The position numbers and the translations under genes are program-made. From the IMG/VR virus record IMGVR_UViG_3300046542_000291, positions 115,641 to 179,640 of that record: DNA of 64,000 nt, one strand, 5' to 3'. The stretch is from a virus. Numbering within the stretch: the first letter of the stretch is position 1; each line of letters starts with the position of its first letter. The notes beneath the pieces were generated by a model. It searched no databases, was not told the origin of the DNA, and was given only the letters and a program-made list of their open reading frames with translations. Shown here piece by piece: positions 8,677 through 50,423 of this stretch.

Positions 8677-9528
8677 CTACAGCTTAAGGATATCCTTGCT
8701 CACGACTCGTTGCCCATCGAACATAGCCGCTGTGACTGGTTCTGCACCTTCGTACATAACGTCGGAGCGGTTTACCACGGTGGTGATCGGCGGCATGGCC
8801 AGGATCTTAACAATCGAACGCCGTACAACCAGATCAGGATTACTGAAGTAGTTGTGCTTTGGTGGCAGCTCGCTGATCTCTTCTGGAGTGAACGGCCGAG
8901 TAACCGTAGACCGCTGGATGTACGTGCCCCGTTTAAATGCTACGGGGAAACGATTCCAGTTGATACCCTTGTCCATGAGCATGTCTTTGATCTGTTTGCC
9001 GTTCTTCCGGTAGATACCACTGTGTCCGAACTCAGCGTGGCCGACCATCTGAAGAGAGTTCTTGGTAGCATCCCATTCACGCCAAACAAACGTGTTGGTC
9101 CCTTCTGCCCGATTGGGTACATTGTAAACCCGGGCATCGAACTCAGGATCACGGTCTGCGTATTCCGGCATGAACTTGAGCACTTCTTGATAGAAGATAC
9201 GGGTAGCCTTAGCCGCCAACCGAGAGATCATCTTCGACACACGGCCATCGAACCACACTTGATACTTCAGTGAGGTGGAGTGCCAGGTGAGAGTGATCTC
9301 ATCAGACTGGGTAAAGCCCATTGAAGCCCCAGTCTCCTCTACCAACTTACGGCAAGTCTCAATCATGCATTGCTGCATCATCAAGTCGTAAGGTCGGTCC
9401 ATACCACGGGTGAACTTACTGAAGCCCGCGCCGTCAATACGGGCCACGATTGGTAATAACGGCATGAAGCGCTGTTGCAGGAAGTCCTGCTCATACATCT
9501 TCATCCGATCGCCGAGTTTGTCAGTCAT
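8677..9528 (-). CDS. Thg1-like 3'-5' nucleotidyltransferase
   Basis: The 283-residue product matches the tRNA-His guanylyltransferase (Thg1) family: RIDGAGFSKFT at 30-40 with the first metal-binding Asp at 32, RPYD after it, TQSDEITL with the second acidic pair at 76-77, and FDARVYNVP near 150. Family members add nucleotides in the 3'-5' direction to RNA 5' ends, either to tRNA-His or, in Thg1-like proteins, to repair truncated tRNAs. The HINxxxHN-type motif diagnostic of eukaryotic Thg1 is not evident, so repair-type activity is more likely. The start overlaps the stop of the gene upstream (ATGA). In a phage it may repair host tRNAs cut by defence nucleases; that role is inference. Confidence 0.88.
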   Translation of the reverse strand: MTDKLGDRMKMYEQDFLQQRFMPLLPIVARIDGAGFSKFTRGMDRPYDLMMQQCMIETCRKLVEETGASMGFTQSDEITLTWHSTSLKYQVWFDGRVSKMISRLAAKATRIFYQEVLKFMPEYADRDPEFDARVYNVPNRAEGTNTFVWREWDATKNSLQMVGHAEFGHSGIYRKNGKQIKDMLMDKGINWNRFPVAFKRGTYIQRSTVTRPFTPEEISELPPKHNYFSNPDLVVRRSIVKILAMPPITTVVNRSDVMYEGAEPVTAAMFDGQRVVSKDILKL

Positions 9529-10220
9529 TTAGATTCCCCAAGATGCTTTGTCAAAGCGATCCATGCGTCGCTTCCGTACCCGCCGATCGAGGATAACCAA
9601 TCGGGAAGCCTCACGTCGCTCTCGTTTACAACTCTTCGGAGGTTCTCGGCGAACCCATATTTCCGGTACGCTGACCACCTTACCCCGCCGAATGCGTTCC
9701 ACTGTGTCCATTGTAGTTCTCCACGAATTGCCAGCAACAGCAGCGGCTCGTTTTTATCCAGGGGTTGGGTATGGTCAGCTTCTGGAATGTACCATACCAA
9801 GTCAGCACGGCGATGCCATCGCTGATGGCGCTCGACCTTCTCCGCGATATCTTTGAGCACACGTGCCATTACGTCGGCAAAGGTGTTCTTCTTGTTTTGT
9901 TGGATTGGCTTTTTGGTATAGGGGTTGACTTCATCCTTACCGCCGTAACAGGTAGCGCTGGCGAACAACTCAAAAGGCCGATGGTAAAGATCGAACCTAT
10001 CGTATCTGTCACTGGACAGGTCAGCTTCAAAATCAAAGAACGTTCTCTGACTCAACATAAGGTCAGCGATATGGCGCTCACCCCGCATCCAGTACGGTTG
10101 TAGTTTGTGACGGGTATCAGATGGAAAAACGGGAAGTACCCCTGAATCAAACCAATTCAGTTGAGGCTCAGTGATTTGTAGAAACGCATCACCTGGCAGA
10201 AAAACGATTTTCGGTTCCAT
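9525..10220 (-). CDS. Unknown 231-residue protein coupled to Thg1-like gene
   Basis: The start at 10220 (MEPKIVFLPGDAFLQITEPQ) follows TTTGGAGTAA; ten extra in-frame codons upstream lack a site and run into the preceding small gene. Its stop overlaps the Thg1-like start, so the two are co-translated. The sequence is rich in aromatic and charged residues (DRYDRFDLYHRPFELF; RHQRWHRRADLVWYIPEADH) and has the look of an enzyme, with scattered His and Asp. I cannot assign a family. Because of the tight coupling, an RNA- or nucleotide-related role is a reasonable guess only. Confidence 0.78.
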   Translation of the reverse strand: MEPKIVFLPGDAFLQITEPQLNWFDSGVLPVFPSDTRHKLQPYWMRGERHIADLMLSQRTFFDFEADLSSDRYDRFDLYHRPFELFASATCYGGKDEVNPYTKKPIQQNKKNTFADVMARVLKDIAEKVERHQRWHRRADLVWYIPEADHTQPLDKNEPLLLLAIRGELQWTQWNAFGGVRWSAYRKYGFAENLRRVVNESDVRLPDWLSSIGGYGSDAWIALTKHLGESK

Positions 10221-48900: not shown

Positions 48901-50423
48901 CCGGTACGTCGCAAGTTCAGGTTCTCATGGACCCGAGCGCTGTATGGAAGAAGATCACCCAAGACCCAACTGTCATGGTGGTAGAAGATTCGAACCCTCT
49001 TGCAAACATCCGTGAGCAGGAATCCATGACCTATCGTGGTGATGGTGGTCGATCGACTCAATCCATGGTTGCACGTACGCGTGTTTACGGTGAGGCTGAT
49101 GTGGGTGTTGTGTCTGAGTCTACGGTTGACTCCGGTGACGTAGGTGTTATTGCTTACCTGACTCCAGATGCCAACTTTGATTCCATGCGTGGTACAACCC
49201 GTCCGTTCGATCCAACTACCGATGGTCCTGCTCGTCAGCTTTCGACGTGTGCACTGTTGGGCGTGGCTACAACGAACGATGACCCGAAACGTATCAACTT
49301 CGTTTCGATTCAACAACAGCAAGGGATCTACGCCGATGGATATGAACCGACTCCTCTTCGCACAGGCTATGAGCAAATTGTTGCACAGCGTACTAGCTCA
49401 ATCTTCGCGTCCGCTGCGGAACAAGATGGCAAAGTAACTGCAGTCGACGAACACGGTATTACTGTGCTCTACGCTGACGGTGAAATCATCAGCTACCAAA
49501 TGGGTAACATCCATGGTAGTGCTGCAGGTGTTCATTACCCACATGCGATCAAGTCTGATCTCAAGGTTGGTGATGCGTTCAAACGTGGGGACACGTTGGC
49601 TTACAACGAGAAGTATTTCCAACCGGATCGGATGTCTCCTGGCCAGGTAATCTGGAAAGCGGGCGTTAACACTATCGTGGCTTTCTGCGATAACTTGGAT
49701 ACCCTGGAAGACGGCTCGGTCATCTCGGAAGACTTGGCTCGTAAGCTGAACACCCAGACCACTGAGGTGAAAAACATCTCTGCTCGGTTTGATCAGACCG
49801 TTGCCGAAATGGTGAAGGTTGGTGATCACGTGGACTTGGAAACAATTCTATGTATGATCAAAGACCCGGAAACTGCCGGAGGTAGTGTCTTTGACGAAGT
49901 GTCGCGTGAAACTCTGCGCAAACTGTCTGCTTACTCGCCTCGTGCCAAGGTTGTCGGTCGTGTTTCAAAGATCGAAGTTTTCTACCATGGTGACTTGGAA
50001 GACATGACTCCTGAGCTGCGTAAAGTCGCTCAAGAATCTGACGCTCTCCGTCAAGCACAATCGAAGTCTCGGAATGAACCCTACTTCTCTGGTCAAGTTG
50101 ACCACGAGTATCGCACGAAAGGGCGTGGGTTGGAACCGGACAGTTTGGTAATCAACGTTTACATCGACCACGACATCCCGTGTGGTGTAGGTGACAAAGG
50201 TGTAGTTGCTAACCAAATGAAAACTGTTTTCTCCCGTGTAATGCGTGGTGAGAACCGCACCAAGTCTGGCCTGCCTATTGGGCTTCTCTTCGGGAACACC
50301 TCTGTTGAAGAACGGATGGTCTTGTCTCCTAAACTTATCGCCACTACGACGATCCTGTTGGCTCACCTGTCTAAGCACGTAGCCGCCGTATATCGAGGAA
50401 CAGCAAATGCAAGAGCAAAGTAA
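45954..50423 (+). CDS. Virion RNA polymerase beta subunit-like protein
   Basis: A 1489-residue homologue of the phiKZ gp178-type beta chain. Near the end it has DHDIPCGVGDKGVVANQMKT, matching the beta motif around GDKxxxRHGNKGV, followed by GLPIGLLFGNTSVEERM and a helical C-terminus, as in beta. An acidic linker (residues about 350-400, DEAGMGEQDADNPDEIPPDK) interrupts it. The gene starts two bases after the beta' part with AAAGGGAATAAC, so the chains are made in fixed ratio. The order beta' then beta fits the phiKZ block, beside the giant tail gene on the opposite strand. Confidence 0.9.
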   Translation: MRLKIHQFLKQYSIFESGKLQHPKLNLLAKLELPQESIVHFFDPNQAVHGPARSDPLFVKNTAKTYIEHVTDLMSLEGNPRRSSMTANKLLSDYKRQNVFFKPLTKDQAVTINPLSVLVVNYNMLDPQWIYPPNFKSTWYRWSNNQKTFWERVVQVHRRFGWNQFIEVHLPEQMPTLQMFNKLRNGQTTQTLETFSQTPTLNLFDIYRWLGPERQTSHLAVLEDEMLDKINLLVRMRDRFVVLNLGLLNSWRDDTKDEEAALERFIEACGNQAVTPSLESVDDEHVLARRSISNSLFDLGLTDQASIEEFIETFGMEAFFPPMVMQRRVISLFGALTEYNQQAEAMPTDSAGVLDDLVDVVDEAGMGEQDADNPDEIPPDKMDEPDSAEADEVPVVEVVAPTLDFGGLDITYTPPEADLFTTKLELEQDAEVEIDRSKEIKVVATKAKPLPESIANAEDVISGVTKPAFDLVEVGLISPRAFEQAEQQANTFKTMKNPFGGDETFEEAMTYKPEDFTIPVDTNLPDSNTILDKSMLGSKLKAMNRKYNQSLRKKDILQAVLSVQKAGVAVVGHNVEVVRDSMNHYEIHTVSVKPIRGKVSPLRFRVPVVDRDGRFMSNGVTYRMRMQRADIPIRKVDAAKVALTSYFNKTFVTRSDRAVHNYDAWILRQLRSRALDLSDASVEHVMYADLDQRKFALPRVYSQLGKAFRGFTTGPVALYFKFEDHAEYLLKKYSLDVMDYEKNGMILVGAYKGKQAVVLDKRGIFYVQTGENLEPLGTIIDIVGIDVSTAPLEATDLTVGAKALPLGFVLCYQYGLQATLQRLGAKVERHNRGERFELSANSYAVVFQDQVLVFDRSDYRTMLIMGGFRRYAKLMKNYPIQTFESKDVYHRLLIDSGMTSRFTKEIDALFTQWVDPITEGLLKQMNEPTTFDGLLYRSLDMLLIDWSPPEVDGAYMRYRGYERMAGTIFNEVNKAVKQFNNQSGTSQVQVLMDPSAVWKKITQDPTVMVVEDSNPLANIREQESMTYRGDGGRSTQSMVARTRVYGEADVGVVSESTVDSGDVGVIAYLTPDANFDSMRGTTRPFDPTTDGPARQLSTCALLGVATTNDDPKRINFVSIQQQQGIYADGYEPTPLRTGYEQIVAQRTSSIFASAAEQDGKVTAVDEHGITVLYADGEIISYQMGNIHGSAAGVHYPHAIKSDLKVGDAFKRGDTLAYNEKYFQPDRMSPGQVIWKAGVNTIVAFCDNLDTLEDGSVISEDLARKLNTQTTEVKNISARFDQTVAEMVKVGDHVDLETILCMIKDPETAGGSVFDEVSRETLRKLSAYSPRAKVVGRVSKIEVFYHGDLEDMTPELRKVAQESDALRQAQSKSRNEPYFSGQVDHEYRTKGRGLEPDSLVINVYIDHDIPCGVGDKGVVANQMKTVFSRVMRGENRTKSGLPIGLLFGNTSVEERMVLSPKLIATTTILLAHLSKHVAAVYRGTANARAK

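What the first reader, a model, noticed from the sequence alone, without database searches (positions are those of the whole stretch)
8677..10220. Phage Thg1-like 3'-5' nucleotidyltransferase coupled to an unknown protein
The metal-binding motifs RIDG and SDE and the FDARVYNVP segment are visible, so the family call is firm. Thg1-like enzymes repair tRNA 5' ends. The gene starts in the stop codon of an unknown 231-residue protein, so the two are made together and may work as a pair. One reading is repair of tRNAs cut by host defence nucleases; that is inference.
Basis: partly seen in the sequence, partly recalled or inferred. Interest (0 to 1): 0.62.

Follow-up and report, generated by a model that had tools for sequence, protein, structure and literature searches.

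The report
Jumbo-phage Thg1-like tRNA end-repair enzyme
A large Pseudomonas-type virus carries an intact enzyme that rebuilds the damaged front ends of transfer RNAs; such phage enzymes and their proposed repair role are already in the literature, and nothing found here links it to the unknown gene next door.

Summary
The gene is real and correctly named: 8677-9528(-), 283 aa, is a bacterial-type Thg1-like protein (TLP). Pfam, PHROGs and PDB searches agree. A 73-sequence AlphaFold2 model (pLDDT 91.7) matches Bacillus thuringiensis TLP, and every metal-binding and catalytic residue checked is present except that the activation lysine is Arg45, as in most of this clade. The record is a 310-kb phiKZ-like jumbo phage that also carries RtcB, an Rnl-type RNA ligase and a tRNA cluster, so an RNA-repair role is reasonable. 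That role was published for phage Thg1 in 2010 and 2021. The 'coupled pair' part fails. The upstream 231-aa ORF (9525-10220) is probably a real gene but an orphan in every collection searched. It is absent beside 96 other viral Thg1 genes and from all 50 Thg1-phage records searched whole. The 4-nt overlap is common in this genome (about 7% of same-strand junctions). The most likely job is templated 3'-5' rebuilding of 5'-truncated host tRNAs. It is not a direct mender of anticodon cuts, since TLPs do not contact the anticodon loop. In passing, outside the window, I found an apparently undescribed structured RNA family (27 matches) that is not linked to Thg1.

The parts
8677..9528 (-). Thg1-like protein (TLP), 283 aa, 3'-5' nucleotidyltransferase
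   Evidence: PF04446 E 4.6e-26; phrog_4717 E 1.5e-79; PDB 4kgk E 9.7e-37; AF2 pLDDT 91.7, Foldseek 4kgm E 2.2e-20
9433..9441 (-). codons R30-I31-D32 (RIDG motif: metal ligand D32, transfer-site R30)
   Evidence: R30 and D32 invariant in 73/73 viral and 81/81 bacterial-set sequences, each set counting this protein; D32 corresponds to BtTLP D30 (PMC3701042)
9394..9396 (-). codon R45, at the place of BtTLP K43 (activation lysine)
   Evidence: R in 66/73 viral and 56/81 bacterial-set sequences, K in 4/73 and 24/81
9298..9306 (-). codons S75-D76-E77 (second metal motif)
   Evidence: invariant in all rows; correspond to BtTLP S74/D75/E76
9232..9234 (-). codon K99 (nucleotidyl-transfer site)
   Evidence: 73/73 viral, 80/81 bacterial set
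9130..9132 (-). codon R133 (nucleotidyl-transfer site, FDAR)
   Evidence: invariant
9058..9060 (-). codon N157 (activation site)
   Evidence: invariant
9525..10220 (-). orphan protein, 231 aa, neighbour of the TLP; no evidence that it belongs to a two-protein system
   Evidence: no match in Pfam, PHROGs or PADLOC, none in phages, plasmids, viral or genome contigs, absent near 96 other viral Thg1 genes and from 50 Thg1-phage records; coding signal
9525..9528 (-). ATGA start/stop overlap of the two genes
   Evidence: 23/333 same-strand junctions in this phage have the same overlap

Best explanation
8677-9528 encodes an active bacterial-type Thg1-like protein of a phiKZ-like jumbo phage. [quoted passage not shown] It adenylylates the 5' phosphate, then adds nucleotides in the 3'-5' direction using the 3' strand of the acceptor stem as template. 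With the phage's RtcB and Rnl-type ligases this would keep the tRNA pool, mainly the host's, usable during infection. Shown here: family, fold, active-site residues, and the presence of RtcB, an RNA ligase and a tRNA cluster in the same genome. Inferred from studied TLPs: activity and substrate. Purely inferred: that the damage comes from host defence. The upstream orphan gene is treated as an ordinary operon neighbour.
For: Family and fold. Catalytic residues: with roles from PMC3701042. All bacterial and archaeal TLPs tested prefer 5'-truncated tRNA over G-1 addition, and TLPs do not contact the anticodon loop (PMC6471195). The eukaryotic HINNLYN anticodon-recognition motif is absent (alignment). 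The same phage encodes RtcB (PF01139, E 2.1e-128) and an RNA ligase (PF09414, E 2.5e-19) close together at C1:96-99 kb. Elsewhere an RNA-ligase family lies near Thg1 in 8 viral loci and RlaP-type proteins in 9; 14 of 23 Thg1-phage records carry RlaP and 20 of 23 a PF09414 ligase. Own-tRNA editing is unlikely as the purpose: the four ARAGORN tRNAs (Tyr, Asp, Asn, Trp) have fully paired acceptor stems and none is tRNA-His, and 201phi2-1 has the gene but no tRNA match.
Against: No activity data. PF09414 ligases also occur in 6 of 8 phiKZ-like or related phages without Thg1, and RtcB in 4 of those 8, so co-occurrence in this lineage is not specific. The activation lysine is arginine. Known tRNA-cutting defences cut the anticodon loop, which does not directly yield a TLP substrate. 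The 201phi2-1 tRNA result was obtained with strict filters that lose weak matches.
Confidence: 0.72

Rival explanations
1. The TLP and the 231-aa protein form a functional pair, for example a subunit that recruits a substrate or processes ends before repair.
For: Adjacent, same strand, 4-nt overlap; both probably translated.
Against: No homologue of the 231-aa protein beside 96 other viral Thg1 genes or in 50 Thg1-phage records, nor in phages, plasmids, viral or genome contigs. The gene upstream of Thg1 differs in each close relative inspected. 4-nt overlaps are common here.
Confidence: 0.1
2. 5' editing or maturation of the phage's own tRNAs, as in Dictyostelium mitochondria, or G-1 addition to tRNA-His.
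For: The family does this elsewhere (PMC6471195); the phage has a tRNA cluster.
Against: The four ARAGORN tRNAs have no acceptor mismatch and none is tRNA-His. 201phi2-1 has Thg1 but no tRNA match. Bacterial tRNA-His carries an encoded G-1 (established knowledge).
Confidence: 0.07
3. The substrate is another structured RNA, for example the tRNA-like RNAs found in the same tRNA cluster.
For: Two tRNA-like RNAs without a normal anticodon loop lie in this genome; TLPs ignore the anticodon (PMC6471195).
Against: The RNA occurs in Psa21 and D6, which lack Thg1, and was not found in Thg1-bearing 201phi2-1 or Viktualia (strict filters).
Confidence: 0.05
4. The protein acts as a 5'-adenylylating or capping enzyme, or makes a nucleotide product, rather than polymerising.
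For: The fold is related to GGDEF, CRISPR polymerase and cyclase palms (weak hits; PMC2904730). BtTLP accumulates adenylylated intermediates on poor substrates (PMC6471195).
Against: Transfer-site residues R30, K99 and R133 are kept.
Confidence: 0.05

Closest known systems
Bacillus thuringiensis TLP (PDB 4kgk/4kgm, PMC3701042)
   Same: Fold, the carboxylates and the S, R, K, R, N active-site residues; E 9.7e-37 by sequence, 2.2e-20 by structure
   Different: K43 is R45; the C-terminal region differs and is longer (283 vs 245 aa)
Thg1 of Pseudomonas phage 201phi2-1 (gp319)
   Same: 52% identity over 92% of the protein, related phiKZ-like phage; already discussed in 2010 as possible RNA repair against host defences (PMC2904730)
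   Different: Upstream gene unrelated; no tRNA match in that phage
tRNA-His guanylyltransferase of Pseudomonas phage Viktualia
   Same: 54.5% identity; a DprA-like gene and dCTP deaminase in the same order around it
   Different: Upstream neighbour is annotated as an endonuclease, not the 231-aa protein
Eukaryotic Thg1 (e.g. C. albicans, PDB 3wbz)
   Same: Superfamily and palm active site
   Different: No HINNLYN motif; about 20% identity

Membership tests
Thg1/TLP superfamily (PF04446) | Score above the curated cut-off | tested here: met
   91.7 bits vs 29.2
Thg1/TLP superfamily (PF04446) | Three conserved carboxylates for two metals | tested here: met
   D32, D76, E77, invariant
Thg1/TLP superfamily (PF04446) | Activation and transfer residues (BtTLP K43, S74; human R27, K95, R130, N158) | tested here: inconclusive
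   R30, S75, K99, R133, N157 present; lysine K43 replaced by R45, as in 66/73 viral sequences
Thg1/TLP superfamily (PF04446) | Palm fold as in solved members | tested here: met
   AF2 pLDDT 91.7, Foldseek top hits all TLP/Thg1
Thg1/TLP superfamily (PF04446) | 3'-5' nucleotide addition | not testable with these tools
   needs an enzyme assay
Bona fide eukaryotic Thg1 (tRNA-His G-1 addition) | HINNLYN motif | tested here: not met
   DATKNSLQMV stands at that place in the alignment to 3wbz
Conserved two-gene Thg1 plus partner system | Co-occurrence of both genes in related phages | tested here: not met
   0 of 96 viral Thg1 loci, 0 of 50 records
Phage tRNA-repair set (RtcB/Rnl/RlaP/Thg1 as in PMC7824862) | RNA ligase in the same phage | tested here: met
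   RtcB and PF09414 ligase
Phage tRNA-repair set (RtcB/Rnl/RlaP/Thg1 as in PMC7824862) | RlaP nucleotidyltransferase in the same phage | tested here: not met
   none in G000
Anti-defence function | Rescues the phage from a tRNA-damaging defence system | not testable with these tools
   needs phage genetics

The most novel reading that the evidence does not exclude
The orphan 231-aa protein is a lineage-specific accessory of the TLP, for example one that presents or trims damaged tRNA ends, making a new two-component 5'-end repair module.
Probability: 0.08. Interest if true: 0.5.

Novelty: new member of a known kind. Interest (0 to 1): 0.22.

Why it matters
The in vivo role of bacterial and phage TLPs is still open. 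This phage adds a clear member with intact chemistry in a genome that also carries two RNA ligases, and the Lys-to-Arg change marks the clade. It does not change the picture: phage Thg1 as RNA repair was proposed in 2010 and catalogued in 2021. The partner claim would have been the new part, and it does not hold up.

Tried and rejected
Functional pair: no homologue of the 231-aa protein in any collection searched, and not beside other Thg1 genes. Structure of the partner: a single-sequence AF2 model had pLDDT 32, so it was not used for a fold search. Own-tRNA editing: rejected because acceptor stems of the four ARAGORN tRNAs are paired. tRNA-like RNA as Thg1-specific substrate: rejected because it occurs in phages without Thg1 and was not found in two with it. 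RNA ligase co-occurrence as specific support: weakened, because relatives without Thg1 have it too. Recurrent antisense ORF families in the neighbourhood clustering were set aside as overlaps of the Thg1 gene itself. P0001 alone, the DNA ligase and the dCTP deaminase as single-sequence queries in viral contigs gave no relatives.

Full report
What is there. The minus strand carries two ORFs, 9525-10220 (231 aa) then 8677-9528 (283 aa), overlapping by the four bases ATGA. The 283-aa protein matches Pfam Thg1 (E 4.6e-26) and PHROGs tRNA-His guanylyltransferase (E 1.5e-79); its best solved relative is Bacillus thuringiensis TLP (E 9.7e-37). The window is part of a 310-kb viral record. Its NAD-dependent DNA ligase is closest to those of phiKZ-like Pseudomonas phages, and it has phage RNA polymerase beta-subunit genes.

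Is the enzyme intact? An alignment of 73 viral sequences shows R30, D32, S75, D76, E77, K99, R133 and N157 invariant. In 81 rows made of this protein and 80 loci from genome contigs the same residues are invariant apart from one K99. By PMC3701042 these are the metal ligands, the transfer-site residues and the activation residues. The exception is the activation lysine (K43 in BtTLP), which is R45 here; it is Arg in 66 of 73 viral and 56 of 81 bacterial-set sequences, so it is a clade feature, not a lesion. The AlphaFold2 model has mean pLDDT 91.7 and its top PDB matches are all TLP or Thg1. The eukaryotic HINNLYN motif, which reads the His anticodon, is absent (PMC6471195). It is a TLP, not a tRNA-His guanylyltransferase proper. 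A tree of 73 viral and 80 genome-contig sequences interleaves the two (at least 9 label changes forced by starred branches), so the gene has moved between phages and bacteria repeatedly, or some genome contigs are phage. The window's protein sits next to the 201phi2-1 protein.

Is the neighbour a partner? The 231-aa ORF is probably a real gene: it is the only open frame, scores best of six, and does so at the level of the neighbouring DprA-like gene. It has no Pfam, PHROG or PADLOC match and only a sub-threshold NCBIfam match. It has no relative in phages, plasmids, viral contigs or genome contigs. The contig scans with a single protein reach close relatives only, so distant homologues are not excluded. 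More to the point, it is absent around 96 other viral Thg1 genes and in 50 Thg1-phage records searched whole. Close relatives have other genes upstream of Thg1. The 4-nt overlap is found at 23 of 333 same-strand junctions by my own simple gene caller. The pair is therefore not supported.

What it most likely does. Bacterial and archaeal TLPs studied so far prefer to rebuild 5'-truncated tRNAs by templated addition and do not touch the anticodon loop (PMC6471195). This phage also encodes RtcB (E 2.1e-128) and a PF09414 RNA ligase (E 2.5e-19), close together at C1:96-99 kb, and a tRNA cluster. Across viruses, RNA-ligase genes lie near Thg1 in 8 loci and RlaP-type genes in 9. The substrate is more likely host tRNA than phage tRNA: the four tRNAs called by ARAGORN have paired acceptor stems and none is His, and 201phi2-1 has no tRNA match at all. 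Defence nucleases that cut anticodon loops would not directly make a TLP substrate, so the anti-defence story needs a nuclease or trimming step that removes 5' nucleotides. As a control, ligases are also present in most phiKZ-like relatives without Thg1 (6 of 8 PF09414, 4 of 8 RtcB), so co-occurrence is weak evidence here.

What is known. Thg1 in phage 201phi2-1 was reported, with the suggestion of RNA repair against host defences, in 2010 (PMC2904730). It was listed as sporadic in jumbo phages among RNA-repair enzymes in 2021 (PMC7824862). Of 50,697 phage records, 121 have a match. The finding is a new member of a known kind.

Found in passing, outside the window. In the tRNA cluster of the same genome are two RNAs with a tRNA-like 5' part whose anticodon loop is lost or remodelled (Rfam tRNA 59.5 and 32.3 bits; ARAGORN misses both). 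Each is followed directly by a homologous domain of about 127 nt. The two copies keep all 32 pairs of one five-helix structure with 15 two-sided changes. The structure came from folding one copy, so the slid controls favour it somewhat, but the paired-change count is far above them. A covariance model found a third copy in a Thg1-bearing viral contig and copies in Psa21 and D6. With loci from DNA-pattern scans it gave 27 matches, with 21 pairs changing on both sides and 96.4% of cells paired (this alignment was fitted to the model). In D6 the stretch before it is annotated 'tRNA-OTHER'. Rfam 15 gave no match for the 3' domain, and the literature searches found no description. The 5' part is tRNA-like in many but not clearly in all members. 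It is not linked to Thg1, because Psa21 and D6 lack that gene.

Noticed in passing
L020:9540-9732(+) and L020:10125-10323(+), i.e. G000 C1:49540-49732 and 50125-50323 (outside the window); members in L233, L288 (phage D6), L289 (Psa21), L275, L272, L283 and others: Apparently undescribed structured RNA: tRNA-like 5' part with the anticodon loop lost or remodelled, joined to a conserved five-helix 3' domain of about 127 nt; 27 matches, strong paired changes, no Rfam 15 match for the 3' domain, inside phage tRNA clusters; not linked to Thg1.
   Followed up: partly
L022:16241-17641(-) and L022:17906-19186(-), G000 C1:96-99 kb: PF09414 RNA ligase with PHA02142 OB-fold domain and RtcB ligase close together: two RNA ligases of different chemistry in one phiKZ-like phage.
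   Followed up: partly
L023:1251-3083(-) and L023:3046-3921(-), G000 C1:101-104 kb: NAPRTase-family protein next to a ribose-phosphate pyrophosphokinase-like protein; resembles the published phage NAD+ reconstitution pairs (recalled, not tested).
   Followed up: no
window 9394-9396 (R45): Activation lysine of studied TLPs is arginine in most viral and many bacterial TLPs of this clade; effect on ATP-dependent activation unknown.
   Followed up: partly
L020:10570-10655(+): tRNA-Asn(GTT) call with a long variable arm (86 nt), unusual for Asn.
   Followed up: no
L078:3866-4981, and 7 other viral loci: RNA-ligase family gene near Thg1 in 8 viral loci, lying directly upstream in some: a better candidate for a functional partner than the orphan here.
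   Followed up: partly
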